64,000 nucleotides of DNA from Dicyema japonicum. Its lineage: Eukaryota > Dicyemida > Rhombozoa > Dicyemidae. Below the pieces are notes generated by a model. That model saw nothing but the letters and a program-made list of their open reading frames with translations. It was not told the origin of the DNA and ran no database searches. A program made the translations under genes and the position numbers. Shown here piece after piece: positions 1 through 64,000 of the stretch (position 1 is its first letter; the number at the start of each line of letters is the position of its first letter). Where the stretch lies: contig RDEW01000069.1 in assembly GCA_011109175.1 (NCBI GenBank), forward strand, positions 40,184-104,183, written 5' to 3'.

Positions 1-2
1 GC

Positions 3-185
3 GTGACCATTAGGAAACCCCGAAGCAATTCCAAGGCACGAGCGGCAGTGCCATACCCCAAGAGCACGGATAGAGGCCTGAGAGAGCTTCAAACACCCGA
101 TGTGAAAGAAGACTCCACAGGCAGAACAAGAAATTCCAAACTTTCTCAAATTGCTCATGTTGCAGGCAGAGCAATTAGACGATGA
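3..185 (+). CDS. 3' end of an unrecognised gene or open fragment
   Basis: An open frame runs in from the left edge and ends at TGA. The last 60 residues are basic and rich in Arg, Lys, Ser and Thr, and finish with an AGRAIRR-type tail. I do not recognise the family. No start codon is inside the window, so if this is a gene only its last exon is seen. It could also be a chance frame. The AT-rich stretch just after it (248-271) carries a 24-nt exact copy of sequence from CCT1. Confidence 0.25.
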   Translation: MTIRKPRSNSKARAAVPYPKSTDRGLRELQTPDVKEDSTGRTRNSKLSQIAHVAGRAIRR

Positions 186-425
186 CTTTTCGAGTAACAT
201 TCCACTGAATCAACAATAGGCGAAAATCAAGAATAGGAGAATAGTCTCAATCACAACACTCACCCACTGAATCATTTAATTAGATAATTTTGTATAAATA
301 TAATACTAAATAGTAGCAAATCAGTAAATAAACACTTAATTATATTTAAATATAATTAATTATTAATAATTTTTTAAAATATGAAATAAATATTTTTACT
401 ATCAAGTTCATATATCATCATTCTT
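186..425. other. AT-rich spacer with a 24-nt copy of CCT1 sequence
   Basis: No gene is seen. Positions 248-271 match positions 3132-3155 exactly; the latter straddle the donor boundary of the fourth CCT1 intron. The rest is AT-rich and lies upstream of the reticulon-like gene, so any promoter would be here, but I see no specific motif. Confidence 0.6.
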
Positions 426-1060
426 ATGCGTCACTCTTTTATGGATATAATCATGTGGAAGAGTCCCATTTATTCAACCACCATTCTCACATTCGTTCTA
501 GGGGTCATCATTCCTTTTCAAATGAGCTTTTTTCTTCATTCATTCTCCAACCTTCTTCTTACCATTTTACTCCTCTCTATGGGAAGCAAAATCTACAATC
601 AGCTGACCTCCTCGACGAACCTCCCGGTCTGTCCAACCAACTCTCAGTTTTGTATTCCCTACTATTTCAGATATTTTGACGACTTAATTTTCTTTGTCGA
701 AAACTCCCTACAAGACTACTTTGCAGGATCCTACTCAAAGTTTGTAGAGGGAGTGAAAACCACGATGGGTCTCCTCTGTTTTGAAGATATATTTACATCT
801 CTCAGAGTGAGTTTGTCGTTAATTTGCAGTATGTGGCGATTCTTTGGGTGACCTCTTGTATTTTCCGTTACCTTTCTCTGCCAATAATATTGATCATCAG
901 TTTGTGTGTGTTTATAGTCTTAGTGATCATTTCCGTGATGACTGTGCCTTTCTTATGCGACAAATACAATATAGAAATGAGTGCCTGGAGGGTTTATGCC
1001 AGAACAGTAACCGATAAGGGAAGTGAGATTACCTGTAATATCTGCCAATTGATGTTCTGA
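426..1060 (+). CDS. Reticulon-like ER membrane-shaping protein
   Basis: Reticulons insert hairpin membrane segments into the ER and curve it into tubules. Three exons are inferred: 426-806, 830-899 and 924-1060, with introns of 23 nt (807-829) and 24 nt (900-923), giving 195 residues. The order matches a reticulon homology domain: an MDIIMWKSP start like the family's DLLYWR, a long hydrophobic stretch, a KIYNQL segment like the RIY motif, a polar loop, an EDIFTSLR segment, then a second hydrophobic stretch ending VPFLCDKY like the family VPxLYExY. The second intron is a multiple of three, but removing it restores the usual spacing between the WV and VP landmarks. There is no long N-terminal extension. 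The downstream ATG at 441 is an alternative start. The family call is by pattern only. Confidence 0.68.
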
Positions 1061-2099: not shown

Positions 2100-3898
2100 T
2101 TAATGACAAGGAGGTTCCTCCTTTGGTTCAGGAGCCAATTTAATATAATCATCAATCCTCAGTATAGTAATAGCTGCCTCTGTGGCCATCTTCAAACATT
2201 TAATCTTATTTATTGCAGGTTCTAACACTCCCGCCTGTTTGTTGTCCCTCACACAACCAGCATCCAAATCCAATCCATACCTACATTATACCAATTACAA
2301 CCAAGCCGGTAATCCCTTAGTTGCCGCCTCATAGTGGTAGGCCCTCAGTTTTCCAAGAAGATCAATAGCATCACAGCAAGCATTAGAGGCCAAAACTGAT
2401 GGAATAACGGTCATAGACTCAGCAAACATAGCCACAGCCTCTTGTTCTTCGGATGACTACACAATAAGATACATGACTACAATAGTGCTGGCAAAACTAT
2501 CAATATATACAGAAAGTGCGGCCTCTACACAACCTCCCCCTGCCACACATGTCTTAGACTCCATAATACGTTTAGTGACACACAGAGCATCATGTATTGA
2601 TCTCTCAATTTCATCACATCCAAAGTAATTTGGTCCTCTAATGATAATTGAGGATGCAGTCCTCGCCTTTGTCCCAGTAACCAAAATAAGTTCGTCATCC
2701 CCGACATACTGTTGTGATACCTGTCCAGCAAATCCCACAAAGGAAGACTCAAATGACTCCCCTCCGTCAGAAGACGTCAAATCCTCCACAAAAGTAGCTA
2801 CAATAAAGACAACTAAAACCCCCGGTTGCCTTGGCAATTCTTTTGACATCATCCTTGAGAACTCTTCTAACAGCCATAGCTCCCACACTAATAAATTGTT
2901 TCATGTAAATATCGTCGATTCCCCCAGTAGTGAAAAGCACCTTCACTCCAGTGTCCAATATCTTCTTTATCTTGTCACTAGTCAACGAAATTTCCCGCCT
3001 TCTTATCTCCTCCAACTTCTTTGGGTCTTCAACCAACACCTGCACTCCCAATTTAAGTTTAGATTTCATAAGACCAAACCCAATGCAGGCAATCTTAGCG
3101 TTGGTGATCACCTTTGGCATGTCTATCATGACAATCACAACACTCACCCACTGAAGCCACCTTACAGTTGATGGCATATCCGTTCACAAGGAAAGACTCT
3201 TTGGTGTTCTTCCCGTGGGCCTTCAGTATGTTCACAGCCTTTATGGGGACTCTCACCGCACCCGATCGCTCATATTTAACCTTTGCACAAGCATCCACAC
3301 ACATTGGGCCAAAAAAGTCAGAGTTTCTGCAAATAAAAACTTTATTATTACGGGCCAATGACTTTGCTGTTGAGAGCTGTTTTGGCGGCATTTATTAGAC
3401 AATTTCTATCGATATCACTCCCACTTATGATCATACGCTCTTCTATAAACTTGCAGGCCTCCTTGCAAGCCATTCTGTAACCCCTTATGATTGAAGTTGG
3501 GTGAACGCTTTGTTTTATCAATTTTTCTGAGTTTTTGAGGAGTTCAGCAGCAATTATTACCTTTAATGTTTAAATTGTGACTACCACGGACGTTGTGCCA
3601 TCTCCGACCTCTTCGTCTTGCAAATTAGCTAGTTGGACTAAAATTTGGGCGGCAGGATGTTCCACGTCCATCATACTAAGAATCGTGGCTCCATCATTGG
3701 TGATGGTAAAGTCCCCGACCTCATCGACGAGCATTTTGTCGAGTCCCATTGGGCCGAGACTGGATTTGAGAATGTTGGCGATTGCACATGTCGAATTCAC
3801 TATAATGAGTGATGTTAGTTACCATTGGCTGTTCTCACTGAAACTCCACTATTTCGTTCTCCGTTAATGAGTAAAGGGTTACCACCAACTGTATTCAT
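2100..3898 (-). CDS. CCT1: T-complex protein 1 subunit alpha (CCT1) of the TRiC/CCT chaperonin
   Basis: CCT1 is one of eight subunits of the cytosolic chaperonin that folds actin, tubulin and other proteins with ATP. Eight exons are inferred: 3823-3898, 3585-3799, 3352-3560, 3148-3326, 2820-3122, 2481-2797, 2302-2456 and 2100-2280. The seven introns are 23, 24, 25, 25, 22, 24 and 21 nt. The spliced frame is 1635 nt, 544 residues, close to the usual length of about 550. Visible family motifs include [24 protein letters not shown], the ATP-binding [29 protein letters not shown]-like [24 protein letters not shown] and a C-terminal [11 protein letters not shown]. These fit the alpha subunit rather than the other seven. 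The start is the only ATG giving the NGERNSG-type N-terminus just before the equatorial domain. Stop is TAA. No disabling change is seen, so the gene looks functional. Confidence 0.96.
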
Positions 3899-4462
3899 AC
3901 TGCTCACCAACTAAAGCGTGCTTTTTAATTAATTTTTAAATCAATAATATTAAATATTATTTTTTGTGTTATTTAATCATAAAATAAATTTCTATTGAGA
4001 CAGGGAGTTATCCAACTTAGCATTTTTGTGAGAAGGTTAAATACCAAAGAAGATTCTATAATGAAACGGTTTCTGTTGATTTCGCGATATTAAAGGCTAA
4101 TTGTAATATATTACGAGTCCATTGATATTTAATTAAACTTTTTATGTTTTTTTTATCAATTTTCTCTAGATTTAACAAATTTATGAATCGAATCACCATG
4201 GGTTTTCGTAACTAAGCAGCGTTATATTATGGTCAGCCGCCAATTGCCTAAATGTCTGAAAATTATTTACACTAATTATGAGAAGTATCTAGATAAAGAA
4301 TATTCTCGAATAAATTGTTAGGAGTATATATGGAAGAAATTATATTGTAAGCTAAGGAAAATAACTACTACAAACGACATTAGTTATTTTAATATATGTG
4401 TCTCTGAAATAACTACATGACACGCGTTTTTTAATTTTCGGATATTTTATCGCAGACCTACT
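3899..4462. other. AT-rich intergenic, no feature seen
   Basis: Upstream flank of CCT1 and 5' flank of the family B element. Homopolymer-rich AT sequence; nothing specific is recognised. Confidence 0.6.
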
Positions 4463-9602: not shown

Positions 9603-9739
9603 AATCTGTCAATTGGAACTGGATCTTTTTGAAAAAAACTTTTTGGTATGCATGGTCTGTGTTGACGGTTGGTCCATAATGAGAAGTCTGACCGAACCTA
9701 CGATTAGACAAAATCTATTCCAAGACAATACAAAGCCTC

Positions 9740-12867: not shown

Positions 12868-13379
12868 TTAATTGTCCTCCTTAAACACAAATCGATGCTT
12901 AAATAGTGATAAATAGACACTTAGAGACAACCTTGGAAACTCATTAATCAAACATTGACTTTGATATGCTCTTGCAAAGAGATATTTATTGGTACGAACT
13001 GCAATACTAGACAACACTACCTTTAGTCGGTTTCTTAGTGGCAATTCATGCTCAGTCTTGCAAATTTGGCACTTGACCGTGAAGGGACAGGTCGCCAGTC
13101 TAATACGCAGACACGTGGAACAAATGTTGTGCCCACAAGCCATTCTGTGAGGATTTCTGCTATTTTTACTAAATCTACAATTTAAAGAAAAAAATACAAA
13201 TATTCGCAAGTTGAGCACAGTAAATGAGCTTTAGTCGTCTCTGACTTGGTGAGAATGTCCTCAAACACATACTTTCTTGATTCCTTAGCAAAGTAATTGA
13301 CATTTCTGTCATTAAACACAACATTTGGTTACCTGCAATAGTCGGAAGAATAAGTTGAATCTATAATTATCGAACTCAT
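12868..13379 (-). CDS. Small RING-finger protein, probable E3 ubiquitin ligase
   Basis: Three exons are inferred: 13333-13379, 13198-13305 and 12868-13174, with introns of 27 nt (13306-13332) and 23 nt (13175-13197). The spliced frame is 462 nt, 153 residues, stop TAA. A complete C3HC4 RING forms across the second intron: C46-x2-C49-x15-C65-x-H67-x2-C70-x2-C73-x13-C87-x2-C90. The core reads PHRMACGHNICSTC. RING domains of this kind recruit E2 enzymes and usually act as ubiquitin ligases; the substrate cannot be told. No second domain is visible after the RING, only about 60 residues with basic and hydrophobic stretches. The start was chosen because the frame is open only from that ATG once the first intron is removed. 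Confidence 0.75.
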
Positions 13380-15123
13380 ATTTCAAATTTAAAAATATAT
13401 TATCAATTTTATACAAATTCATTTTCTATTTATTTATTAAAAATATAAAATAAAAAAGTGACTTTAGCATTGAATGTTCAATAAAACGTAAAATTTGATT
13501 TTCAAGAAGATTTCTATCCCAAATCCGTTCGGGACATTGCTGTCTCTAGGATGGATCTGAGATTTGTCTCCTCTCACCTAACCAACTTATTATTAATTCC
13601 TTTCTTGCCTAGGGATAATAATGACTTTAAAAGACTTGCGTGGATCCCACCACTTTCATATGCACGTTAAATGGCAGTTGGCTTCCTAAGTCTGAGCAAC
13701 AAATATATTATCACAGAATCTTAAATTATATTAGTGATAATCAGTATTCTCATAATTTAATAATTATTGTACTTATTGACATGGCGCAGTGTTACAAGTG
13801 CCAGGCACAAGTTCTGATGGTCCTAGTTAGAATATCGATGCTGTATATTCCAGCTGAAAGTTCCATGCATCTACGATGTTTAGTTGACGAGTGACCCCAT
13901 CATCGATGAAAATCTCATTGTGGAACCGGGGCATATATAAAAAGACTCACACCCAACAAAAAGAAATAAAAATCATTTGTTTTATATTTGTCCTTGAATT
14001 GAGTTTCTTAATGAGTTTGATATATAAGTAATCTGAACATATAGTACAGTTTAGGGAAACTAATAAAGTAAAACAAGAGAAGCGACAACTAAATAAATAT
14101 GAGAAACACGACGTTAAACACTAATAAGAAAACGTTAAAACACTAAACTCATTATGACTGTCAAACATGCTGCCATCTGCTACCATCCGAGATAGACATG
14201 ACCATCTATTCGCAATGTATACAATTGTTCGGAGTTGTAAAAGAGGTCCTTAACCCAATATTCTGGATTAGTTTGGTGATGTTGACAGAACAAACAAACG
14301 GGACAAAAAGACATTAAAGAGTTATAAAATTGGACACAGAGTGTGATTAAGATGCCATGGTTATAAGATGAACCATTTAGTAAGTTGTCAACATTAAAAC
14401 AAAAGTATTCTCGGAATGGGGGAAACACTGAGATGTAAATTGAACAGTGCTGAGTCCAGGGATAGATGTGAGATTATGACAATGACAAAACAGTTCCCCA
14501 ATTCTCCTGAAATGAAGTCATCTTTACAAAAAATGGGTTTGCAGAGGTCGACGGTGACAAATACCGTGGAAAGAAAATTGAATTAGTCAAAAATATGACC
14601 GTGTAGAGAAAATCTTGTTGTGAATGAGTGGAATTGATGTATAAATAAAAACATTCATAATTTTGAGTACAAAAAAGAAACTTTGTGAGAAAGACCATGG
14701 ATCACAAAATCAAAGTATTAGAACTGGTATATGAATAGAGTGAAAATTACATAATTTCTTTGTTTTCCCTATATATAATTATTATAGTTGGTCACAATGT
14801 GCGCATTACATAATTTACATCGATGACTACTCTCATCTAAATAATATATTGCATTTGCAAAATACGTGAAACTCGTGACTATTCCTGTTGATATTTTTAC
14901 TGTTAGACATTTTAATAATAAAAATTCACAAAATGAAATCAAATTTAACAAAAATAAACAAATCAGTCAAATTCAATCAACATTGTCAATGAAAGACCTC
15001 TTAGAAGAACTCTCAGGAATAGGAGTGGATAGTCTTTTTCTAGCAAAATCAACCACATCTTCATCACTTCTAACAATATGAAAATCATCCCCCATCCCAA
15101 TTCTACCAAATTATATGAAAACA
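13380..15123. other. Intergenic with several unsupported small frames
   Basis: Small frames occur on the minus strand at 14180-14428, 14474-14698 and 14769-14951, and on the plus strand at 13640-13894 and 14866-15081. The minus frame at 14180 contains FCPVCLFCQHH and the three minus frames lie close together, but I could not join them with plausible GT-AG introns and do not recognise any family. The rest is AT-rich. Confidence 0.4.
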
Positions 15124-16939
15124 CTACGAATGTTGTAATTTAACGATAATCTTAAAATCCTGAAAGAAGTCGTCACAAATAAGTTCCGAAGAGTCCATAA
15201 TATTAAAACACGTCATTAGCTTCCCATCAATCTCTACAAATAAATAGATAAGGGACCCTTTTGGTCGTCTTCATCAAGATCACAGGAAATCAGAATTGTC
15301 CCGGAACCGTCGTAAATTTCCACATCGGGGAAGACCATCCCTAATCCTTCTTTGAGGATCTACCAAATCTAACCGCATATAACCTTATCCCTGAAAAATC
15401 CGACTGTCACTGAATCCAAATCGAGAAGAACGGTGGCAATATTGGATTCCGAACAAGCATAACAGTCACGATTTGGCTTGGGAAGGGAGGTAGGAACGAT
15501 GATGCAGCCATTTGAAGTTGGGTACCGAGATAAATAAATAGACCGGCATTTTTGGGGGTCACTAATGAACTTAATGAGTTCAATCACGACCAATCCAGCA
15601 ATAGTTGCATTTGTAAACGCAATGGCGGGGATAATATTTCCGGCCAAAGCTAAAATAATTATAAATTATTTTTAAATCAAATGATTAATAAAACTAATTT
15701 TAATTAAATTAAAAAAATAATAGACAATACATTTGGCGGTAAATTTTGACAATTTTTCTATTGAAAAAACGTGTGAACGGATATTTGAGGCAGCAGTCAC
15801 AAAATTAATACAATCCTCATCATCCTACAGGAAATAAAACATTTTGACTTTATCCCATCCAATTTCTCCCTTCTCATACAATCTGGCCTTTAGGATGCCC
15901 ATACTTTTGTTAAAAACAGAGATAGATTCCTCCAGTGACCAAACTAAGTAATTGCAAGCCTCCACATGTCCATTGCTGAATGAAAATTCTCCAATAGGAG
16001 TGGGAGGTTTTCTTCCCTTCCACAAATCACCCAACGAAAGCAAGTAGTTAATATCTGTATAAAATAGCTAATTCATCGATAAACGAGCAGAAACCTTAAA
16101 AAGTAGTTTTTCAACATCATAGTCACAATTTTCAGCCATTTTCTTTATACTAATAGGTCCATTCGAATTCTCCCCAGACTGAATTGACACATTCTCAGGT
16201 GAGATATCCTCGTTGAGGTCCTCCTTAGAGAACAATTGACTAGGATCAGTAGACGACCAAACTTGAACAAGTACTTAGCCCATACAACACAGTGAATAGG
16301 CTTTGAAGGAGTATTTCTAATAGTACAACTGGCGTAGGTTTTGGTAGACTTGTTAGGTTTACATTCGTAACAGGCAGTCTCACCCTAAAATAGTCAGAAA
16401 AGTTAACCATAGATATTAGATTGAGATTCCCTAAATACCCAGCTGTTCCACTGTCAATAAAAGGGACTGATGATCTCAGGCACATTCGGTTAATGTGAAT
16501 ACGAGCAGCCACATTGTCCAAAGCACAGAGAACAATGTAGAACTGCTTATAGAAACTTGAATCGTATTCTCGCCTGTATGATAGATATTATTGTTTACTT
16601 GGTTATGTCGTCATAGTAGGCGTGGAGAGTTGTAGGTTTCCCATACAACTTCTCAACAGATTCTTTAGCCACCTTATATTCAATAAAAGCAAAAACCAAT
16701 GCTTTAGACATTCCCACGTGATGTGGACGAAACAAAAACTGACGATTAAGATTACTGACCTCAATTGTGTCCAAGTCGATCTAAACTGTGACCAACTTAG
16801 TTACAATGTGAATACTAGTGAAGCCAGAAAAGACCAACGACTTTAATAGCTCACAACCTATTCCTCCAGCACCTACCAGCAAAATTTTATATGAGGGCAG
16901 TTCTCTGTCAATTCCTATCAATTTAGCATATTCCTCCAT
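15124..16939 (-). CDS. UBA2: SUMO-activating enzyme subunit 2 (UBA2/SAE2)
   Basis: UBA2 with SAE1 adenylates SUMO and takes it up as a thioester before passing it to UBC9. Eleven exons are inferred; in gene order the introns are 16781-16804, 16673-16696, 16574-16598, 16385-16407, 16240-16262, 16068-16094, 15825-15848, 15650-15730, 15360-15383 and 15234-15256. Nine are 23-27 nt and one is 81 nt. The spliced frame is 1518 nt, 505 residues. Visible are the nucleotide loop [30 protein letters not shown], zinc pairs CYEC (158-161) and a later CYAC, and the catalytic segment [14 protein letters not shown] with the active Cys at 173. The ubiquitin-fold part ends [13 protein letters not shown] and the protein stops there. 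The longer C-terminal tail of vertebrate UBA2 (about 640 residues) is absent. The gene starts 80 bp after the POLE4-like gene on the same strand. Confidence 0.96.
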
Positions 16940-17019
16940 TATAGCACAAGGTTAAAAATTTAATTTAAATAAAATAAATTAATAAAACATTTATTACAAC
17001 AAATCAGTAATCCCTAACA

Positions 17020-17356
17020 TTAATAATAATAAATACCTTCAAGGAACTCAAACCGAGAATCAGTGGAGATAAGATGAGCTAAATAATAATACTAATAATA
17101 CTAAGATCACTTTTTCTCATTACTTTTCTTTTCTCTATTGACATATAAAATACTGCCTCCTTTGCAAAGTCAATTACGAATAGTTCCTTAAATAAGTAAT
17201 ATTAGGTACAGCAGCTTTCGCCATGAGAGTAACATAGTCTGCGGACACAAGGTTGACATCAGGGTCACTCTTTATTATCTTGCTGATTGTCCCCACTCTG
17301 AATGTTGGTCGACAATGAGTATGCAATTTCCCACTTTCATTAGTAACATCAACCAT
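17020..17356 (-). CDS. Histone-fold protein of the POLE4/CHRAC1 group
   Basis: These small NF-YC-like histone-fold proteins pair with POLE3-type partners in DNA polymerase epsilon or in the CHRAC remodeller. Three exons are inferred: 17210-17356, 17102-17186 and 17020-17078, with 23-nt introns at 17187-17209 and 17079-17101. The spliced frame is 291 nt, 96 residues, stop TAA. The histone-fold pattern is clear: FRVGTISKIIKSDPDVNL, then LMAKAAELFVIDFAKEA, then a KRKVMRKSDL strand and a C-terminal RFEFLEG. The DPDV and FLEG segments favour POLE4; the AKAAELFV segment fits both. A minus-strand AATAAA lies shortly after the stop. UBA2 follows 80 bp downstream on the same strand. Confidence 0.85.
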
Positions 17357-22333: not shown

Positions 22334-23320
22334 CTAAACAATTTTATTAGCAACAAACTTTTTCCGTTTCTTTTGGGGAGAAGACCGTCTATTTTGCTCT
22401 TTAACTGTGGGAGGTTGTCTTGTATCCTGATTATACACCGAATTTGTGTTAATTAATCTGTTTGAGTAGATAATATATGGGGTTGGAATGAAATACAAGA
22501 GCTGATCAGTCATATTGGGATACATTGGTGTAATATTGAAGTAATTCATATTATTTATAAAATTCATTAATTCATTTCGACAAGTCCTATAGTATACTGG
22601 TATAGGGACATTTGGATCCGGTAATTTTTCTGCAATAACTTCTTTATGACTGAAAAATAACGAAAGCCCAAACTTAACAAACTGAGTTTGATTATTTTTT
22701 GATTCAAAATGTGTAGTTTTCACTAAGTCTGGCATACGATGACATAACCGTGACTAAATTATGCTACACTTACCCCATAATTTTTTAGTTTAGCTACACA
22801 ATCGATTGCAGTCAGTTTTTCGTCAGTGTATAACTCCCAGATATGTTTGTCCTCTTCTTTTGCCATTTTACAATGTTCATATTTTATTCCATTTGGTGTT
22901 AGTATCGACTCCCATAATTCCTGAAATCAGCGTTCATGTTACCTCCTCTGTGTTTATACCTTCCGGCGCTTTTATTTTCGTTATAAATACAAGGCGACTG
23001 CTCCTCACCCGACTCCCAGTCTCATCTAATTTTAGTTTGTCGGACTCTAAAACATGCAAAATGAGCAACCTCTAGCCACATTGGCTATATCTTCAAGGGA
23101 AGCGTTATTTTCTCTCATTTTGTTAAATCTTAGGATTTCATCAATCGCCACATAATTGAAAAAGTCCATCAGTCTCTTGAGGTACCAGTCTTTAATAAGG
23201 TTTTTTCTAAAGATAATCAATTCAATGAAACTCAGAAAAATAGTATTCGAGGTAATACTTAAGAATATCATCCTTTTTAGGAATTTCTATTTGAACTTCT
23301 GTCTTAGAAACAACAACCAT
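22334..23320 (-). CDS. La-motif RNA-binding protein (LARP family)
   Basis: La-motif proteins bind RNA 3' ends, poly(A) or 5' regions and control RNA stability or translation. Five exons are inferred with introns of 25 nt (23207-23231), 23 nt (23047-23069), 22 nt (22921-22942) and 20 nt (22754-22773). The spliced frame is 897 nt, 298 residues, stop TAG. The La motif lies at about residues 15-85: YYLEYYFSEKNLIKDWYLKR, then VAIDEILRFNKMR, then an EDIANVARESDKLKLDE stretch and RVRSSR. An RRM-like region with weak sequence follows (KIKAPEGINTEELW, IWELYTDEKLTAIDCVAKL). The C-terminus is basic (SSPQKKRKKF). The La motif followed by a divergent RRM and an NxEE phrase recalls LARP4, but LARP1, LARP6 or LARP7 cannot be ruled out. 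The first intron splits the FSE-KNL core and must be removed for the motif to appear. Confidence 0.78.
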
Positions 23321-28510: not shown

Positions 28511-29241
28511 ATGTCTGATGATAGTTTTGGTGGTCCTCAATTCGCGGTCGCACGTGACCAAACTATTGGTGTCAAACGGCAGTCCGCACCTGAAAATGGT
28601 CAGAACCCCTCTAAAAAGGGTGTCTCTTGTGAATATGTAAATTATTTCCATTTATCTTCCAGAATCTAGAATCCCTTCGTCGCAATATGGAATATATGAA
28701 CGCCGAGACTGAACGCTTGAAAAAGCTCAACGCCCTCATTAGCGCCTCCACTGATGATGTAGTTCCAGATGAATCTGTGAAAGAATACCCAGAATCTAGT
28801 CCATGTAAAGAAATATTTTATTTCTAGTAAAACTAGACCTTAACCAAGTCGAGCTTCCATTCGACGCCCAGGAAGTCGATAAGAATTCAATTTACATAGG
28901 TAACGTCGACTACAGCTCAACGGCTGAGGAGGTTGAAGACCACTTCAAGAACTGTGGAAAAATTAACCGAGTGACCATAATGGTTGACTCCAGAGGTCGT
29001 CCTAAGGGGTAATTTGCTTATTTACAGTAGGTACGCGTACATGCAGTTTGAGGACGAGATGGCATTACAAAATGCCCTGGAATATAATGAGACCGAGTTT
29101 AAGGGAAGAACCATTAAGGTGACCATAAAAAGAAAGAATCAGCCATTCCACGTGAGAAGGGGGTCGTTTCCTGTTAGACGGGGATTTTCAACGTTCAGGC
29201 GGTTTCCTAGATATAGGGGAAGACGAGGGTGGTTCTATTGA
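28511..29241 (+). CDS. PABPN1: Nuclear polyadenylate-binding protein 2 (PABPN1)
   Basis: PABPN1 binds growing poly(A) tails in the nucleus, stimulates poly(A) polymerase and controls tail length. Four exons are inferred: 28511-28636, 28663-28804, 28828-29008 and 29031-29241, with introns of 26, 23 and 22 nt. The spliced frame is 660 nt, 219 residues, stop TGA; human PABPN1 is about 306. Residues 43-75 form the expected acidic/leucine-rich helix (ESLRRNMEYMNAETERLKKL). The single RRM starts near residue 108 with SIYIGNVDYSSTAEEVEDHF (RNP2) and has RPKG-YAYMQF (RNP1) split by the third intron, then IKVTIKRKN. The C-terminus is Arg-rich (VRRGF, RYRGRRGWFY), like the methylated tail of the family. 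The N-terminal Ala/Gly-rich part of vertebrate proteins is missing. Confidence 0.95.
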
Positions 29242-30970: not shown

Positions 30971-31639
30971 ATGTAATCTGTATTGCGTAACAAGAGGGGT
31001 AATCTCTGCCAGAGAAATCCTTTGGAACAACCATTCGGTTTCCCCCAATACTAAAGAGTTTTGAAAATTAATTCAGTTATATTCCCTCAGCCGATTAATC
31101 AAATTTGAAGTTTAATATATAACACCTGAATATATATTGATTTAATTTTCAAAGTTTAATTTATATATTGTGTTGCCACATGATCTCTGCGTTAAAAAAG
31201 AATGTCCTCAGCTAGCTAAATGCTCTTGGATCCACAAGAGCGAGGTAGATAGCGGATGAGAATAAGTTAATCATATTTGGGGAGTTTTTAAGCTATCTGA
31301 GAAGGATTTAGTGGAGAGGAATTTTGGAATGTTGACAATAATTAGCAATGTTTGTCGTTTGAGGGGTGCTTCAATAGGCATATATCTGAAATTAGATTCG
31401 ATTTGTCTGTTGGCGAGTTTCTTGATTCTGAATAATATGTACTGAAAAATATATATTGCAGGGAAGATCATATCCGACATGGACGAGACTCTTGGAAGAA
31501 TCGCCAGAAAGTACATTTGGTTATCCGTATCTAGGATGGTTTTTAAGGTATTTGTTCATAGCTTCACAAGGAAGACTGTTAGGCAGAGAGGCTCCCCTCA
31601 CCATCTTTTCTTTCAATAAAAACTTTCTTCTAGAGGGGC
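30971..31639. other. Intergenic, unassigned
   Basis: Short open stretches on both strands without a recognised family. The family A copy to the right is entered at about 31640. Confidence 0.35.
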
Positions 31640-34430
31640 AGACAAAAAGTTTCATCCAATTATTCTTTTGGCGGATAGATAGTAGAGAGCCATATCTTCA
31701 GGATAGAAAGGATAAACGTTTCAAATATCTTTTTCGATATAACACAGTAAGATCCGACCGCCAATCTGGCCAAGGAGGGGGTCTACTGACTCTTGTGAGA
31801 AAAGGAATAAAATACCTCGAGAACCCTTCTCTTTACAAGAGCTTAATGGAAAACTCGAACACGGAGATAATTGGAATCTCTGTTATAACTTCCATTGGAA
31901 AAATTGAAATTGCGAATGTTTATGTTCCTCCTCCTGGCTCCTGCAAGAAAAATTTCTCCTTTGACCTATCTACCTTGGACAAACTGGAGAACTTACTTTT
32001 ATGTGGAGACCTGAATGCGAAGCACCTTTCTTGGTTCCGCTACCAGTCCGCTGATAACAGAGGAAACCTGCTATTATCCCAAATGCAAAACTTAATAATC
32101 ATCAACAACCCGAAAAAGAACACTAGGACACCATACAACACGAAGGACATGGTGACATCTCCGGACTTATCGTCTGCTCACCTCGTCTTTCCACGATCAT
32201 TAATTGGACGGTCCGTTAAGACCTCCGGAGCGACCACCATTAAATGTTAATGAAGCTGAACTGCGAGCCAGGCTTTGTACCGAAGCCTATTCATTTCTAT
32301 GATTACAAAAATGCAAATTGGACTGGCTTTACAAATTTCGTTGATTCAAAACTGCAACATTTCCAACCTGAAAATTTCTCCTCCATAGACAAAGCTGTAT
32401 ACTATTTCAACAAAACAATCATTGACGGGAGAAATATTTTTATCAGAAAAGCATATATAAAAAACGAAAAATTGAAATACGACTCAAAAACAAAGAAAAT
32501 AATTATGGAAAGAAACAACCTTAAGAGAATGATACATCGTTCACGAGAGGTCATTAATCGAATCAGGTCACTAAACATTCTTATCACGAAAAGCACAAAC
32601 AACACCCAAAGGAAGAAATTCATGCGAATCTCTGCTGCCATGAATAATCAGACCTCAATTTCCAACATGTGGAAGATGTTGAGACGTCTGAAGAACCCAG
32701 AATACGAAGATAACAAAGAACAATGCTCAATCTGAATAAATATATGAAACATTGTATTCGAATCAGTCACATTCCTTATAAAAAGATTAACACACAAACG
32801 AAAATAAAGAGAAAGCCATCCAAATTTGCCACGCTGATTTATTTTCTTCCTAAAGATGTATCCAAAGAAATATCAAATCAGAAAAAAACAAACTCATGTG
32901 GTTCAGACGGAATTCCTCTTATTCTGCTGAAACACTTGGGCTCAGCATCAATAAATGCATTAACAAACATCTACAACACATCGCTGAACATAAATACCAT
33001 ACCGACTTTATGCAAAAATTCGACCAATATTGAAGCCGGAAAGACCGAAGAACGATCCCGGCTCTTACAGACCAGTTTCCCTTATATGTGTTTTGTCGAG
33101 GATCCTGGAGAAACTTGTCCTAAAAGTTATCCACCCTTCTCTCCCACAACCTACATTCCAACATGGCTTCAAGGAAGGATTATCACAACCTCCTTCCTAA
33201 CAACATTAATGAAGTTCATAACTGAAGGACATAAGAACAAGCCAAAACAGGAAAAATCGGTCATATGTACGATCGACATTCAAAAAGCTTTCGACTCTGT
33301 CCCAAGAAAGATCCTCATACGAAAAATATTTTTGACAAAAATTGATGCACCATTAAAGTTATGGTTAGCAAATTTCGTAAGTGGACNNNNNNNNNNNNNN
33401 NNNNNNNNNAAAAATCGGTCATATGTACGATCGACATTCAAAAAGCTTTCGACTCTGTCCCAAGAAAGATCCTCATACGAAAAATATTTTTGACAAAAAT
33501 TGATGCACCATTAAAGTTATGGTTAGCAAATTTCGTAAGTGGACGCCGAGGGAAAGTGTCCGTCGGAAACAAGAGTTCCAGATCAGGATTATTACCCAAT
33601 GGTGTACCCCAAGGATCTCCTCTGTCACAAATCCTTTTTAATTTGTTTTTGAGTGATCTCCCCGTACCTATGAATAATAATGACATGCTAATTTCTTATG
33701 CCGATGACATAGTTGTCGCATCTAGGGACGTAAATGTCGAACATGCTAAAGAAAGACTACAAGGAATACTAAATAACATATTTGGATGGTTGTGCGAAAA
33801 TCGATTAAATGCATGTTCCGAAAAGTCAGCAGTCACTCTATTTACTAAGAATAGAAAGATGGGAACGCAAACAATTGATGTCACGTTAAATGGAGTACCT
33901 ATACCACAAAAGAAATCGCAGAAGATACTGGGAGTAACTTTTGATACTTTCCTCTGCTTCTCAGCCCATGTGGAATCTATCATATCAACCTGTGCAAAGA
34001 AGATCAATTTTGTAAAGGCCTTCCTTTGGAACTGTGGAGGAATTTATCCGCCAGGTATCGGGACCCTCTACAAGCAGTATGTCGAGCCAACAATAGGCTA
34101 TGCATGTGCTGCATGGGGATCTAACCTGTCGGCAACGAACCTAACAAAAATTCAAGAGATCCAGTCAAGAGCAAAAAAATTACTAGAAAAATATACAGAT
34201 AAAGAAATTGCCCCCAGAGCACTCGAGTCTATCATAGAGCCAACTGGAGGCAATTTCAGAAGAGGAAAGGAAAAAGACCCCTGTCCGTATAGGAAATGCG
34301 TGGGATCACGGTCGGAGCATCGCGAAAAAATGGCCCGATTATTGAGAGATGCCGGGATCACCTGAATATTAGTTATTGGTTAAGATGGTGTTTCTTTGGC
34401 TTAAATAATAATAATAATGGAAATGGGTTT
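31640..34430 (+). mobile_element. Family A retrotransposon, long copy with endonuclease and RT
   Basis: The endonuclease part (31680-32250) shows GQGGGLLTLVRKGIKY, EIIGISVITSIGKI, VYVPPPGSC, LLCGDLNAKHLSW and INNPKKNTRTP. A basic linker follows (32244-32735). The RT part runs from about 32850: CGSDGIPLILLKHLGSA, KAFDSVPRK near 33280 and again near 33440, LPNGVPQGSPLSQILFNLFL near 33592, an intact ISYADD near 33690, KILGVTFDTFLCFS near 33925 and ACAAWGS near 34110. The protein ends LLRDAGIT and stop near 34365 and the shared 3' tail ends in TTAAATAATAATAATAATGG. A frameshift lies near 33000-33200. About 134 bp is repeated on both sides of a 23-N gap, so part of the damage is assembly error. 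Jockey/CR1-like by motif order; the clade is not assigned. Confidence 0.88.
33250..33543. repeat. Duplicated RT sequence flanking a 23-N gap
   Basis: The sequence from about 33250 to 33386 reappears at 33410-33543 after the N run at 33387-33409. Both copies start AAAAATCGGTCATATGTACG and end GTAAGTGGAC. The gap therefore probably has negative true size, meaning the contig ends overlap. Confidence 0.85.
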
Positions 34431-45544: not shown

Positions 45545-47864
<2,320 letters not shown>

Positions 47865-48070
47865 TTTGGTAAGTAGCCTGTATTTAATTCCATGGGAGAG
47901 ACGTTGCTGTAAGGCAAGTCTGAGTGGTGACTTCAAATGTTTTAATATATTAGTAATCTAGTTATTATGGTTATATGTAATGATTAAGGTATTATTTGTG
48001 TTACCATATGTCACAATGATTCGTTATTTTTTAAATTTAACTGTTATTATATTTATTAGAATATGTAAAA
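47865..48070. other. Upstream flank of the AFG3L2-like gene
   Basis: On the minus strand the frame of the chosen start stays open upstream to about 47956 without an ATG. It encodes a stretch rich in Leu, Arg, Lys and Ser with no acidic residues, such as KHLKSPLRLALQQRLSHG, which would suit a mitochondrial presequence. Confidence 0.4.
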
Positions 48071-49370
48071 TTGTGTAAATTATCATTAATGGAGTTTCTA
48101 GTTCCCCTATTAGTTAATTTCTTCGTCCACCATCATTGGATGAGTACAATTCTTGTTGTACCGTTCCTTCCCTTCAGTTCCTCTCAACATTGCTTCAGAA
48201 AGTTCTATTCAATGTCCACCCACCTTACTTCTCTCAATCAATTTATCCTTGATGGCTTCAACTCAAGTCCTCGTCACCTCAAAACCATCGTCTGCTCTGT
48301 GGATCTGCGTAAAGCCTTTGACTCTGTCTCCAGGAAAATCTTAACCAGGAAATTATTTGGACTCTCCATTAACCCCAATCTAAAACTCTGGCTTTCGAAT
48401 TTCCTCAGCGGAAGAAGGGCCCGGGTTTGTATGGATGGGACCAAATCACTTTCGAGACTACTTCCCAATGGTGTTCCGCAAGGCTCTCCTTTGTCCCCCG
48501 CCTTATTCAACCTTTTTATGTCCGATTTGCCACGATCAGTTGATAAAGACGATCTTCTCCTCTCCTATGCTGATGACATTCTAATTGGATCCCGTGACCA
48601 GGATCTCCTAAAAGCCTCAGAAAGAGTTAAAAAACAACTGCACGTGATTCAAAATTGGTTAATCTCCAACAGACTTGATATATCTCCTGAGAAGTCCTCC
48701 ACATCACTATTTACTTCAGAGAAACGTCTTGGAAAAATGACCGTTGACTTATTTATCAACCAAACTAAAATACCTTTTACGAAGAAATTGAAAATCTTAG
48801 GAATCGCCTTTGACACGCACATGACCTTCTCCCCTCATGTCGAATATATCTCCGGAACCTGCTCAAGAAAGCTTGGTTTGATCAAATCTATTTTTGGTGG
48901 CATCAGAACCCCTTTCCCAGCATTGAAACTACTACATAAACAATTCATTGAGCCATCTATCAGCTACGCCTGTGCGTTTTGGGGAATCAACCTATCCTGG
49001 ACGAACAAACAGAAAATCATTGATATTCAGTCCCTATCAGCTACAACTATCGGCAAGCTCATGAGAACAGTCAGTCTCACACCCACCTCTCTGGAAGACC
49101 TTATCGGACAAAATGGGAAGGGATTCACTGCTCTGTGCCGAAAATCCAACTTCCTACAATGCTCTAATGGATTGGGTCTTACTAGAAGACTTTACATCAC
49201 CCCTCTTGTATTTCTTTCAAAACCCTCCCGTCCTCAGATAAGCTGTGTTGGATCTCGGAAGGTCCACCGGAAAAGATGAGAGACCTGATGGAGGCGGCCG
49301 GGATCACCTAATTAGTTTAATACAATTAAATTAACTATTGGTGTTCTTGGATTAAATAATAAAAAAAGTC
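48071..49370 (+). mobile_element. Family A retrotransposon, best-preserved RT
   Basis: An uninterrupted 402-codon frame covers the RT: LNQFILDGFNSSPRHLKT, VDLRKAFDSVSRKILTRKLF near 48300, LPNGVPQGSPLSPALFNLFM near 48460, an intact LLSYADDILIGSRD near 48560, NRLDISPEKSSTSLFTSEKR, KILGIAFDTHMTFSPHV and YACAFWGINLSW. The first residues before about 48150 look like replaced sequence. The last part shifts frame and ends RDLMEAAGIT and stop near 49310, then the shared tail GGTGTTCTTGGATTAAATAATAA. The endonuclease is missing, so the copy is 5'-truncated. It is probably the youngest family A copy here. Confidence 0.85.
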
Positions 49371-59450: not shown

Positions 59451-59695
59451 CAACTGCCTTCCGGAAGTGTTTTAATTTGTGTCTGCAGAGGAATTCTATC
59501 GGAGTACACTTCTTTATGGTCGATCTGATTTCCTCTGTTTTTCATTCTTTGTGTGAGAAAACCTGAAATTATTTAAAATTATTTTGGTTATAATATAAAA
59601 AAATAAAAAAATAAATATTTAAAACACTTATTAAAATATAGTAAAATGATTTAAACTTGTGTCAATTAGTGTAGTTAACATACAATACGTCAATT

Positions 59696-62600
59696 ATGCC
59701 AAAATCCAATTACTTGAAGGAACAATCTCTGACCTTCTCACTCGCCATTCCCGTTAACAGTCCTTCCATTGTTAATATTGTTTGTGGATGTGTTCTACCT
59801 TCAGGCTATATAGTCTTGTGCTCTACAAACGGGTCAATTTTTGTTTGTGGTCCTCAAACAAACACTTGTCACCTAATTTTTGCGCTTTATGGACATTCTT
59901 CCACAATTCTGCTCGTCTCGGGTGGGCCTTCAATAGTCGGAAAGGACTGTTTCCTTACTTTCTCAAGGGATCGTCGACTGATTTCCTGGTCCATCACCCA
60001 AAACTCCGTGAAATGTCTTCAAAATTCAGTTCAACCTTTGGATCATCGAAAATTAATTTTTACTGACATTAAATTAACGGATTCCTTAATTTCCGATGAC
60101 ACGCTCATTATCTGCCACGGATTGTATTCCTTTATTGTGGGAATGAGTTTCAAGACTTTTCACGTGCTCTTTCTACTCCCAGTCGAGGACTCTGTAAATT
60201 TTTTAAAGTCTTGCGATTTATTTGTGGATTCTTCTGGTCTCATGATTATGACAGCGACTGAGAGGATGCTGTGGGTGTGGACTTTTACTGACCTTAATGC
60301 GAAACCTGTTGAATTTTACTCAAATATTGATGATTTCGGAGGTTTTTCCGTCAACTTCATCTCTCAAAAATCGACCCCTTACATTCTTTTGTCTTCCAAT
60401 GCGTATTCCGCCGTGTTCGAAGACGGAGATGAGATTTACCGGTTCGAAACCAGGTCTGATCTTGGATATCTTGTCGAATCAAGGGTTTTTCTCGAATTTC
60501 ACCTGGTACTCTTATACGAGGACGGAATGGTTCTCCTGTTTAGCATGGATATTGAGAGGAGAGATGTTGAATTTGTTAAGTCCCGTAAATTATTCGGCAA
60601 ACCTGTATTTTGTGACCGAAATTTGTGTTTTTTCGCAGATTCTGAGATTTATTTCGCTGACCTGTATTCCCTGGAAGTTGTCAAAACAATTGAAATTGAC
60701 CACACAACATGTCAGAGGAACACCTCATTTTCCCCCTTTTTTGTTTCCTGTCTTATTTACTACTCTGCTATGGATTTTATAATTTGTGGGGGAAACGACG
60801 GTTCTATTCGTTGTTATCGGGGATTTTTATTGCTTATTGAATCTACTGTGGAGGAACATGTTTTCTTTTTCGCTGCCCACGTGGGATCAGTTACCGCTCT
60901 TTTGACCCCTCGAAGACATGAAAAAGACGTGAATATTCTGTACAGTGGGGGGGAAGATATGTCAGTGGCTGTTCACGATTTGGTAGAGCAGACGTTTCTG
61001 CGCCGATTCCACGCCAATGGAGGCAGTATTGTCTCTCTATCCTTCCCAGAGTTCACAGAGACGTACTGTCTTTTCCACAATGTTGTCTGTTCTTTGGGGG
61101 ACGACTGTTCACTGGCTCTGTTTAGACTGGATAAGTGTATTTTCTCTGTGTTTCATTCCACACCCGTTAAATGTGTTTATTTTAACCCAGACGTTGAGTA
61201 TTTGTACGTTCTTTGTGAGAACGGTTTGCTGTATATTTGGAATGCACGTGGTGGTTACCTCTCTAATACGTTTTCGGACTGGAAGGTCATCAAAATCCTC
61301 ATTTCTTCTTTACCACGTTTTTATACCGACTGTGATTCCGGGTTCTGTGCTGATTCCTTCCCAGAGGAAAGTCAATTTGCCCTGACAACATGTGATGAGG
61401 TTGGCTTTGAGGAAGTAAAGACGACTGGAGTATTAAAGTCACCTTCTATGATCTTTCCTCTCCGTATTAGAGCACTCCATAACTCTGAGAAATGTATCGA
61501 CTGGATTGTGGTCACTTTTGATGTCGACCTCCTTGTTCTCCTTATGCACCGAAGAGTGGGGATTTATAACGTCCCGGAATGCCTTAGTCCACGTGGCATT
61601 TGTGAGACTCTCCTTTATTTGCTCAAGAGTGATGTACCTAACTCTATCTGCTATCAAACAGGATTGGAGACACTTTGTATTGTCGTCTCTTGTAACATTT
61701 CTCTGCTTGATCCCGTAATGAGATGTGCTATGTTTGTGATTCGGTCAACAGTCGCTGATTTGACGGAGAACGATAACTTTGATAGTTTTACTCATGATTT
61801 TGTGGGAGAAGCTTTTTTTGAATGTCTGGAACTGCTGGTTTATTTGGAACAGCACTTCTCGGTCGTTGTTCGCACAATTTCCGAGACTTTACTGAGACAC
61901 CTTCTCTTAAATGACGCAGAAACTGCCCTGAAGCACATGTCAGAGAAATATTTGTCAGATTTATCTGAGGGAAATGGAATATTTTTTGGTTTTACACTCG
62001 CAAACTGTCCTCAAGAGTTGCTGAGTTCTTTGTTGGCAAGTGAATGCTTCCAGGAAAGTGTAATTCAGTTTAGTCAGCAGTTGTGGATTGTCTTGGATGA
62101 TGCAAAGAGCTCATTTCACGTTCAATCTGCTTTAAATATTGTCGGGAAATGCTTCAGTGTGGTTGAGTCATACATTCCCGTTCAGTACCTCATCATAAAA
62201 ATGATAAAAATTGCTGACTGTGCTGAATTTGAAGATTTTCCACATGTCGGGGACCAAAACCCGTCTGACCGTGAACGGTTCTACGCCATGTCATCTCTCA
62301 TGAAGATCATTTCTAACCACCCTTTCATGTTTGTGACCACTATCACTCGGGAAATCAAGAAAGGAGATTATGTGGTGGAGAAATTTTTTCCAGTCATCAG
62401 ACTTTTGGTGAACTCCTCACCCTTCTCTTTAATATGGGGGAAAAAAGAGATTATCAATGATTTCATAAACATTGTGAGTGTTGTGTCTGTTCATTACAAA
62501 GACTACCATTTTTATGACTTGTTCCCAAACTTTCGCGACTTTTCTCAAATTGCATGGAATGAAAAATTCAAAATCGTGGCAGTTGCCTTGGTCACTGGTA

Positions 62601-62908
62601 AGATTATATTTTTTGATTTGAAAAAGAATAAAATATATTCAATAAAATATCACCAAAAGTGTTGTGATTTTGTTAAATTTTCTCCAAGTTGTGTATTATT
62701 TGCTTCTGTTTCAAAAGAAGAGGGAAAACTCGGAATATGGCGGTTGGAGAATTTTTATACAATCTTGTCTTCTCCCGTCTTACGTCTGGTGATGGGCTCC
62801 AAACTTGAAAAAATTAATGTCGTTGGCCTTGAGTGGAGGAGTAATACTTGTGTTTCTGTTAGTTTTTTAAATGACGATGATGTGTGTTTTGATACTGCAA
62901 ATAAATGA
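59696..62908 (+). CDS. WDR7: WDR7 homolog (rabconnectin-3 beta)
   Basis: WDR7 pairs with DMXL proteins in the rabconnectin-3 complex, which promotes assembly of the vacuolar proton pump and acts on vesicles. One uninterrupted frame of 1070 codons, stop TGA; human WDR7 is about 1490. N-terminal WD repeats cover about residues 20-540: GHSSTILLVSGG and FLTFSRDRRLISWSI near 75-105, AHVGSVTALLTP near 400, LYSGGEDMSVAVHD near 420, SLGDDCSLALFRLDKC near 470 and YLYVLCENGLLYIWNARGG near 505. A helical middle follows. A C-terminal WD part has VALVTGKIIFFDLKKNK near 965, VKFSPSCVLFASVSKE near 990 and a KLGIWRLE strand near 1010, then LEWRSNTCVSVSF, like the LIWTSNRNVILM end of the family. The order of motifs fits WDR7 better than DMXL. 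No introns are needed, unlike the other host genes, though in-frame short introns without stops cannot be excluded. Confidence 0.85.
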   Translation: MPKSNYLKEQSLTFSLAIPVNSPSIVNIVCGCVLPSGYIVLCSTNGSIFVCGPQTNTCHLIFALYGHSSTILLVSGGPSIVGKDCFLTFSRDRRLISWSITQNSVKCLQNSVQPLDHRKLIFTDIKLTDSLISDDTLIICHGLYSFIVGMSFKTFHVLFLLPVEDSVNFLKSCDLFVDSSGLMIMTATERMLWVWTFTDLNAKPVEFYSNIDDFGGFSVNFISQKSTPYILLSSNAYSAVFEDGDEIYRFETRSDLGYLVESRVFLEFHLVLLYEDGMVLLFSMDIERRDVEFVKSRKLFGKPVFCDRNLCFFADSEIYFADLYSLEVVKTIEIDHTTCQRNTSFSPFFVSCLIYYSAMDFIICGGNDGSIRCYRGFLLLIESTVEEHVFFFAAHVGSVTALLTPRRHEKDVNILYSGGEDMSVAVHDLVEQTFLRRFHANGGSIVSLSFPEFTETYCLFHNVVCSLGDDCSLALFRLDKCIFSVFHSTPVKCVYFNPDVEYLYVLCENGLLYIWNARGGYLSNTFSDWKVIKILISSLPRFYTDCDSGFCADSFPEESQFALTTCDEVGFEEVKTTGVLKSPSMIFPLRIRALHNSEKCIDWIVVTFDVDLLVLLMHRRVGIYNVPECLSPRGICETLLYLLKSDVPNSICYQTGLETLCIVVSCNISLLDPVMRCAMFVIRSTVADLTENDNFDSFTHDFVGEAFFECLELLVYLEQHFSVVVRTISETLLRHLLLNDAETALKHMSEKYLSDLSEGNGIFFGFTLANCPQELLSSLLASECFQESVIQFSQQLWIVLDDAKSSFHVQSALNIVGKCFSVVESYIPVQYLIIKMIKIADCAEFEDFPHVGDQNPSDRERFYAMSSLMKIISNHPFMFVTTITREIKKGDYVVEKFFPVIRLLVNSSPFSLIWGKKEIINDFINIVSVVSVHYKDYHFYDLFPNFRDFSQIAWNEKFKIVAVALVTGKIIFFDLKKNKIYSIKYHQKCCDFVKFSPSCVLFASVSKEEGKLGIWRLENFYTILSSPVLRLVMGSKLEKINVVGLEWRSNTCVSVSFLNDDDVCFDTANK

Positions 62909-63129
62909 TTTTTATTGAATGTCCTCCTAACTCGGTGCCGTTTTTGTCTTTCGTCGACGCAAAAGACCAATGTTGATTCTTGCATGTAGATTAATTAGTT
63001 GGCATTATTTTGAATAATGTAACAAATGTTTTGAAATACAGTCTGGTCTAATTACACTATTTCAGTCTAGTAAAAATTAATCACTTAATATTGATTATTA
63101 CTCCACCTCCATTACTGATGCAGCCCTCA
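62909..63129. other. 3' flank of WDR7, no feature seen
   Basis: AT-rich; nothing recognised. Confidence 0.5.
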
Positions 63130-64000
63130 ATATATAACGGAGATCAACTAGAGAAGCCACCCGGTCTCATGTGCGTCTCGGCTTTTTAGTGTAGCTTGGC
63201 GTCTAAGTTTCTTTAGGAAACGAAACGATTTTCCACTTATTCTTCCAGTTGTCTCGATCACAATGGGATAGAAAGTGAACCGATCGTGCAATGCTTCATA
63301 TTTTTTCTCTTTTGCTTTCATTGTTTTTTTCATCATATAGTGAGTCTACCGCGCTCCCACAATGTTGGATTGGCAAAGTTGGTCGACACAGGTAGCATCC
63401 CAGACCGAAGGTTTCCCCTCTTCGAATGGGAAAATTGTGATCCCGTCAGGACGTTTACCGTCTTTTCTGTCCAAGCCAACAGGTTCAAGTATGTCGGGGT
63501 ATCTCGCTTGACAATTCCGTTGATCGCCTTATGTCTTGAGAATCGTATTGCACTTCTTAGACAAGAAAGGGCATGGTGTCCATAACAGTCGACGGTAGCG
63601 CCTACATTTGTGAGTCCGGCAAATCTCCAGTCTAAGTCTGTTGGAGGTTCCGATTTCACATCTTCCAGTGACTGGACAGGCACGTCTGTGTTGATTTGAT
63701 TGGTTCAGAAGTTTCTCATATTTATCTCCGCAGATGGTCCTGTAACGTTTTTTCTGCTCAGGCATCATACCTTTCAAATGCTCCATATCTGTGATTTCAA
63801 ATGATTATGTTTGGAGTTGAAGAATCATCCTGATCAACAGTCGGCTGGAGCCCAAAGAGGACAGATACGGGGGCAAGCCAGATCTTTCGGTAAAGAGATT
63901 CCCAATCAGCCCAGGGTAACGGGAAAGGTCGCTTGGTCCCACCCTCGGTAGTCAAATTTCACATTGGTGATGTTAATAGTGGTCCGGACGAGGGAATCGA
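63130..64000 (-). mobile_element. Family C retrotransposon, C-terminal part, running off the window
   Basis: On the minus strand: a region before the knuckle (KYEKLLNQSNQHRRACPV near 63710), a knuckle piece (VGATVDCYGHHALSC near 63590), RFSRHKAINGIVKR near 63530, and a C-terminal KKYEALHDRFTFYPIVIETT near 63285. The RPDG-WD block is poorly kept. The 5' side continues past position 64000. Confidence 0.65.

What the first reader, a model, noticed from the sequence alone, without database searches (positions are those of the whole stretch)
1..64000. Nearly all host introns are 20-27 nt
Seen directly: in eight genes (reticulon-like, CCT1, RING, UBA2, POLE4-like, La-motif, PABPN1, AFG3L2-like) I place 44 GT-AG introns, 43 of them 20-27 nt. 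After removal each gene closes as a single frame with an integral codon count (for example CCT1 544, UBA2 505, AFG3L2-like 666, PABPN1 219 residues) and conserved motifs that were split become whole. Introns of this size leave almost no room for separate branch-point and polypyrimidine signals, so the spliceosome must recognise them by intron definition at the physical limit. Many end in TTATTGTAG- or TTTTAG-like sequence.
Basis: partly seen in the sequence, partly recalled or inferred. Interest (0 to 1): 0.9.

Follow-up and report, generated by a model that had tools for sequence, protein, structure and literature searches.

The report
Tiny introns of a dicyemid parasite
The window comes from a dicyemid, a tiny parasite of octopuses and their kin whose genes are already known to carry introns of about 25 bases; the sequence confirms this and adds a likely branch point squeezed to about seven bases from the intron's end.

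Summary
In the window I model 49 introns in the eight genes, 46 of them 20-27 nt. In 317 kb of the same genome 229 of 252 modelled introns are 20-27 nt, mode 23. The peak appears under a flat length prior. GT-AG gives 66 such introns against 8-18 for ten mock dinucleotide pairs. Homology alone puts 34 of 47 exon junctions at 20-27 nt.

It is already known. The genome's Pax6 has Dicyema acuticephalum Pax6 as best hit, and three introns share domain and phase with published cDNA-checked ones. Dicyemid introns of about 25-27 nt were reported in 2007, 2008 and 2019.

What goes beyond the passages I read: an A concentrated at position -7 (52%, against 22% in matched decoys), often inside YTNAY; a 2008 paper saw no branch-point signature. 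U1, U2 and U6 recognition sequences are canonical; SF1, U2AF65 and RED are encoded; U12 and U6atac are present. The machinery looks ordinary while the geometry is extreme. No RNA data were available.

The parts
441..1060 (+). reticulon-like gene, weak model; introns 504-526, 652-670, 807-829 (23, 19, 23 nt)
   Evidence: Pfam Reticulon 28.3 bits, under its cut-off of 31.8
2100..3898 (-). CCT1, 544 aa; introns 3800-3822, 3561-3584, 3327-3351, 3123-3147, 2798-2819, 2457-2480, 2281-2301 (23, 24, 25, 25, 22, 24, 21 nt)
   Evidence: spliced protein residues 7-540 align in one stretch to solved CCT1
12899..13379 (-). RING-like gene, weak model; introns 13306-13332, 13175-13197, 12999-13020, 12932-12953 (27, 23, 22, 22 nt)
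   Evidence: Pfam zf-RING_5 23.1 bits, under its cut-off of 27.9
14973..16939 (-). UBA2; introns 16781-16804, 16673-16696, 16574-16598, 16385-16407, 16240-16262, 16055-16084, 15825-15848, 15650-15730, 15360-15383, 15234-15256, 15103-15127 (24, 24, 25, 23, 23, 30, 24, 81, 24, 23, 25 nt)
   Evidence: residues 16-520 align to solved UBA2; intron 16673-16696 rests on that alignment, where the model carries 8 extra residues
16994..17356 (-). histone-fold (POLE4-like) gene; introns 17187-17209, 17079-17101, 17014-17036 (23 nt each)
   Evidence: Pfam CBFD_NFYB_HMF 45.2 bits, over its cut-off
22759..23320 (-). La-motif gene; introns 23207-23231, 23047-23069, 22921-22942 (25, 23, 22 nt)
   Evidence: Pfam La 47.4 bits, over its cut-off
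28511..29210 (+). PABPN1-like RRM gene; introns 28637-28662, 28805-28827, 29009-29030, 29152-29177 (26, 23, 22, 26 nt)
45545..47864 (-). AFG3L2-like gene, 666 aa; 14 introns: 47823-47845, 47739-47761, 47516-47539, 47366-47387, 47260-47283, 47145-47167, 46988-47010, 46857-46880, 46680-46702, 46528-46549, 46296-46318, 46158-46179, 45935-45956, 45625-45645 (21-24 nt)
   Evidence: residues 165-661 align to solved AFG3L2, so the introns before residue 165 are not tested by that homologue

Best explanation
The window is nuclear DNA of a dicyemid (probably Dicyema japonicum; the species is inferred). The 20-27 nt segments are U2-type GT-AG spliceosomal introns shrunk to one narrow length class. Mechanism, step by step: (1) U1 pairs with a weak donor, recognised mostly by its GT (donor statistics shown, pairing inferred). 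(2) U2 pairs with a T-rich, YTNAY-like site whose A lies 7-9 nt from the 3' end, mostly with 15-16 nt before it (position and motif shown statistically, use as branch point inferred). (3) The intron is T-rich on both sides of that A and only some six nt follow it, so branch site and AG are probably bound as one unit (composition and spacing shown, binding inferred). (4) The fixed length of the whole intron is the recognition cue, i.e. intron definition (inferred).
For: Length peak without a length preference (75 of 132 at 22-25 nt, flat 15-80, first part: 71 of 132 at 20-27, flat 15-400). Mock-dinucleotide control. Homology-only junctions, 34 of 47. Spliced CCT1, AFG3L2-like and UBA2 align to solved homologues. 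Dicyemid: Pax6 best hit D. acuticephalum, E 8e-94, next E 2e-80; introns of 24, 23 and 25 nt with phases 0, 1, 0 in the same domains as published introns a, c, d. A at -7: 52% against 22 +- 3% in decoys, z 10.2; YTNAY with A at -7: 39 against 11.2 +- 3.0 shuffled, 0 of 500 reach it. U1 ACUUACCUG in 4 of 5 copies, U2 GUGUAGUAUC in 8 of 8, U6 ACAGAGA in 8 of 8 copies read. SF1, U2AF65, RED encoded.
Against: No RNA was seen: no junction, lariat or branch point is measured. Only 87 of 229 introns have YTNAY with the A at -6 to -9, so the motif is a tendency. Longer introns exist: 30 and 81 nt in UBA2, 68 nt in U2AF65, about 41-43 nt in three actin genes, and introns over 100 nt were outside the models. 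The finder was trained on the same loci. CCT1 and actin searches showed no Dicyema among the 120 hits listed of about 8000 each. U1 bodies are divergent: none of 11 matches reaches the Rfam cut-off.
Confidence: 0.92

Rival explanations
1. The segments are not introns but reading-frame patches: assembly indels or decayed genes that can be closed by cutting out some GT..AG piece.
For: Pieces can be cut at mock dinucleotides too (69-146 per pair), and at least one sampled gene, Pax6, has an apparent frame break.
Against: Mock pairs give only 8-18 pieces of 20-27 nt against 66 for GT-AG, and no length peak of that size; junctions from profiles alone cluster at 22-25 nt; spliced proteins match homologues; position-specific A.
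Confidence: 0.02
2. Length is not sensed. The introns are merely the end point of deletion bias in a compact, fast-evolving parasite, and the spliceosome would accept longer ones as readily.
For: Introns of 30-81 nt occur in the same genes and 41-78 nt in others. Donor information beyond GT is small: mean 4.6 of 9 matches to CAGGTAAGT, G at +5 in 23%.
Against: The length range is very narrow. In Paramecium bursaria introns of 23-26 nt are spliced better than shorter or longer ones (passages), a precedent for length sensing. The A at -7 sharpens as introns get shorter.
Confidence: 0.3
3. The segments are removed as DNA in somatic nuclei, like the short eliminated sequences of ciliates, not as RNA.
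For: Dicyemid data hold many circular contigs (passage), and ciliate eliminated sequences can be of similar length (recalled).
Against: GT..AG ends are in excess over mock pairs, with a spliceosome-like A. The 2007 authors cloned genes from both genomic DNA and cDNA and call the difference spliceosomal introns. TA..TA ends were not among my mock pairs.
Confidence: 0.01

Closest known systems
Short introns of dicyemids: Aruga 2007 PMC2222250, Irimia and Roy 2008 PMC2483917, Lu 2019 PMC6736024, Zverkov 2019 PMC6543705 (passages of each; one section of the first); Ogino 2010 seen only as cited
   Same: Same animal group and the same length class: 26.2 +- 1.9 nt (16 introns), 24.93 nt (41 introns), median 27 nt; weak donor
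   Different: Mode here is 23 nt. The 2008 paper reports no branch-point signature; here an A is concentrated at -7. Lu reports a mean of 38.2 bp, longer introns included
Ciliate tiny introns: Stentor 15-16 nt (PMC9505925), Paramecium bursaria median 24 nt (PMC12862383), Nyctotherus 21-29 nt (PMC2633312); passages
   Same: Length class, T-richness, weak motifs; in Stentor the branch A sits at position 10 of 15, i.e. -6, with U2 and U6 recognition sites conserved
   Different: Not animals; Stentor introns are shorter still
Trichomonas vaginalis type B introns (PMC12316389, passages)
   Same: Introns down to 23 nt, with the branch site fused to the 3' splice site
   Different: Strong conserved motifs and few introns (63); here motifs are weak and introns many
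Human short introns and Smu1/RED (PMC6692369, passages)
   Same: Sets out the geometric problem, about 52 nt between 5' splice site and branch site for an unaltered B complex; RED is encoded here
   Different: Dicyemid spacing is about 15-16 nt; Smu1 was not searched

Membership tests
U2-type (major) spliceosomal introns | GT..AG ends | tested here: met
   66 introns of 20-27 nt against 8-18 for ten mock pairs
U2-type (major) spliceosomal introns | branch-point-like A near the 3' end | tested here: met
   A at -7, z 10.2 against decoys; also in 87 introns called without splice matrices, 14 against 3.8 shuffled. Statistical only
U2-type (major) spliceosomal introns | U1, U2, U6 RNAs with canonical recognition sequences | tested here: met
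   U1 4 of 5, U2 8 of 8, U6 8 of 8 copies read; U4 and U5 were not searched
U2-type (major) spliceosomal introns | removal from RNA as a lariat | not testable with these tools
   no RNA data for this animal
Dicyemid short introns | the genome is a dicyemid's | tested here: met
   Pax6 best hit and intron phases; CCT1 and actin listings were uninformative
Dicyemid short introns | uniform length near 25 nt | tested here: met
   229 of 252 at 20-27 nt, mode 23, cap 100 nt
U12-type introns | RTATCCTT donor with a TTCCTTRAY branch site | tested here: not met
   40 donor-like sites in about 355 kb held, one poor 91-nt candidate in L020, none in the window
Ciliate-type eliminated DNA | TA-bounded ends (recalled) | not tested
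   TA..TA was not among the mock pairs

The most novel reading that the evidence does not exclude
An animal spliceosome with unchanged U1, U2 and U6 recognition sequences splices introns whose 5' splice site and branch A lie only about 15-16 nt apart, with the A some six nt from the end of the intron. Branch site and 3' splice site are then read as one fused unit, against the printed view that dicyemid introns carry no branch-point signature. The adjustment must lie in proteins; one candidate is the SF1-U2AF65 hand-over, since the tryptophan of SF1's U2AF65-binding motif (role recalled) aligns to phenylalanine here. The same genome keeps U12 and U6atac RNA genes, so a minor spliceosome may persist next to this extreme major one.
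Probability: 0.45. Interest if true: 0.65.

Novelty: already known. Interest (0 to 1): 0.4.

Why it matters
Dicyemids are animals whose introns fall in the ciliate length class. Work on human splicing puts the spacing needed without restructuring the B complex at about 52 nt (PMC6692369, passages); these introns offer about 15-16. A dicyemid spliceosome with standard RNAs makes it testable which proteins set the lower limit and whether branch site and 3' splice site can be recognised as one unit. The position of the A is a concrete prediction for lariat sequencing.

Tried and rejected
Letting introns range to 400 nt while also learning the length distribution joined neighbouring genes into one chain (later iterations); rejected. 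The final models cap introns at 100 nt, so longer introns are not measured. In one search, 9 of 34 models were dropped before the count (8 retroelement-like or tandem-repeat models picked by eye, 1 under the score limit), 5 of 33 were dropped likewise. One of the 23 introns outside 20-27 nt, the 93-nt one, only links the POLE4-like gene to UBA2 and is an artefact.

CCT1 and actin searches did not reveal the organism among the 120 hits listed each; Pax6 did. The SSU rRNA search failed five times and was given up. A test for avoidance of stop-free introns divisible by three is unfair here, because the finder misses just these (one search counts 7 such, against 48 divisible by three with a stop; one missed case is known, in UBA2).

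One search used 40 of 40 rows, 60 of 76 and 4 of 32. Of 73 adjacent pairs I kept 47 with a profile gap of at most 6 residues: 34 are 20-27 nt, 3 are 28-29, 5 are 41-78, and 5 are impossible as introns (-10 to 10) and count as misses. Two gene pairs there look like duplicates and count twice. The U12-intron scan gave one poor candidate.
Full report
WHAT WAS CLAIMED.

CHECK OF THE OBSERVATION. I wrote a spliced gene finder (codon model plus GT..AG introns) and ran it with a flat length prior. With the prior flat from 15 to 80 nt a sharp peak appeared: 75 of 132 introns at 22-25 nt, mode 23 (splice-site matrices were used from its second round on, and its first round, without them, has 43 of 92 at 22-25). 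With the prior flat from 15 to 400 nt, 71 of 132 fall at 20-27 nt (first part). With one coding model and no splice matrices, GT-AG gives 66 introns of 20-27 nt of 117; ten mock pairs give 8-18 of 69-146. The final set has 229 of 252 introns at 20-27 nt in 28 of 33 models, from 317 kb that include 20 kb of N; an earlier set has 212 of 234. These last two sets use a learned length distribution and a cap of 100 nt.

Independent of the finder, I took consecutive exon matches of the chaperonin, actin and U2AF65 profiles and estimated the gap between them: 34 of 47 usable junctions are 20-27 nt, median 23; 3 are 28-29, 5 are 41-78 and 5 are impossible values. Spliced CCT1 (residues 7-540), UBA2 (16-520) and the AFG3L2-like protein (165-661) align to solved homologues. 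One 24-nt UBA2 intron without a stop was missed by the finder and shown by the homologue. In the window, 46 of 49 introns are 20-27 nt (plus that case). The RING and reticulon models are weak.

WHICH ORGANISM. The genome has 64.7 Mb in 191 contigs, the window 37.5% GC, small N gaps and reverse-transcriptase-like reading frames (recognised by eye, no family search). This resembles the Dicyema japonicum assembly: 67.5 Mb, 36.7% GC, 4.1% gaps, 48.9% repeats (PMC6736024, passages). The decisive point is Pax6: the best of 6604 hits is Pax6 of Dicyema acuticephalum (E 8e-94, 63% over 81% of the query), the next E 2e-80 at 44%. Introns of 24, 23 and 25 nt lie in the paired domain and homeodomain with phases 0, 1 and 0; the 2007 paper gives phases 0, 1, 0 for its introns a (paired domain), c and d (homeodomain), from genomic and cDNA clones. 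My Pax6 model is incomplete (306 of about 408 residues, 5 introns against 7) and crosses an apparent frame break. Searches with CCT1 and actin showed no Dicyema among the 120 listed hits each. The species name is inference.

WHAT IS ALREADY KNOWN. Aruga 2007: 16 introns, 26.2 +- 1.9 nt (passages). Irimia and Roy 2008: 41 Dicyema introns, mean 24.93 nt, weakest known 5' score, no signature of branch points (passages). Zverkov 2019: median 27 nt, about two thirds under 30 (passages), citing Ogino 2010, which I did not see. Lu 2019: mean 38.2 bp (passages). The main finding is therefore known.

WHAT IS ADDED. (a) A branch-point-like signal. A at -7 is 52% in 229 introns against 22 +- 3% in decoys matched for length and T content, z 10.2; -8 (z 4.6), -9 (z 3.4) and -11 (z 2.8) are raised less. 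YTNAY with its A at -7: 39 against 11.2 +- 3.0 in shuffles; at -8: 22 against 11.1; at -4 and -5 it is depleted. It is also present in the 87 introns called without any splice matrix (A at -7: 14 against 3.8 +- 1.9). It tightens with shortness: A at -7 in 11 of 11 introns of 21 nt, 73% of 51 at 22 nt, 54% of 81 at 23 nt, then spreading to -8 and -9. YTNAY with A at -6 to -9 is found in 87 of 229; in 58 of these the A has 15 or 16 nt before it. The intron is T-rich over its whole length, on both sides of the A.

(b) Recognition sequences are unchanged: U1 ACUUACCUG in 4 of 5 copies, U2 GUGUAGUAUC in 8 of 8, U6 ACAGAGA in 8 of 8 copies read. U1 bodies are divergent: none of 11 matches reaches the Rfam cut-off, best 69 against 69.5. 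The donor is weak: mean 4.6 of 9 matches to CAGGTAAGT, G at +5 in 23%.

(c) SF1, U2AF65 and RED are encoded, with introns of 22-26 nt except one 68-nt intron in U2AF65. The U2AF65 model matches solved RRM1-RRM2 and UHM stretches; its part before RRM1 is short and may be incomplete. In SF1 the tryptophan of the U2AF65-binding motif (role recalled) aligns to phenylalanine.

(d) U12 (85.4 bits, cut-off 53) and U6atac (37.0 bits, cut-off 33) genes are present, one match each. Of 10 papers listed of 205 in my literature search, nine on dicyemids or orthonectids hold neither minor-spliceosome term; the tenth, PMC2483917, holds both kinds of term, but its passages do not connect them.

HOW IT PROBABLY WORKS. 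Human B complexes would need about 52 nt between 5' splice site and branch site if unaltered (PMC6692369, passages); here about 15-16 nt are available. Stentor (A at position 10 of 15) and Trichomonas (branch site fused to the 3' splice site) show similar geometry. The economical reading is that the whole intron is bound as one object of fixed length, with donor, branch site and acceptor close together. That the A is the branch point, that recognition is by intron definition, and which proteins adapt, are inferences. A rival, that length is only the end point of deletion bias, is not excluded.

VERDICT. Observation confirmed; interpretation partly supported; phenomenon already known in dicyemids. 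The branch-position signal and the retained minor-spliceosome RNAs are modest additions worth testing.

Noticed in passing
L057 (G000:C68:163471-163599, -) and L055 (G000:C34:237761-237858, -): U12 and U6atac RNA genes over their Rfam cut-offs: a minor spliceosome may be kept in this compact genome. No convincing U12-type intron was found in the DNA held.
   Followed up: partly
L052 (G000:C45:1290000-1292500), N-terminal part of SF1: The tryptophan of SF1's U2AF65-binding motif aligns to phenylalanine, while the KH domain and the U2AF65 domains are well kept. One gene model only.
   Followed up: partly
window 59696-62908 (+): A 1070-residue WD40-like gene modelled without any intron, among neighbours with many.
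   Followed up: no
G000 actin genes on C159, C132 and C115: In three actin genes the junction near profile position 41 is estimated at 41-43 nt, not about 23: possibly a second, longer intron class.
   Followed up: no
L053 (G000:C13:1406300-1408350), Pax6 paired domain: Apparent frame break inside the Pax6 paired domain, perhaps an assembly error; not mended.
   Followed up: no
window, e.g. 31432-34365 and 48041-49279: Broken reading frames that look like reverse transcriptases of non-LTR elements (by eye only).
   Followed up: no
L026:8305-9811: A tandem repeat in which the finder placed alternating 28 and 25 nt 'introns'; dropped from the counts.
   Followed up: no
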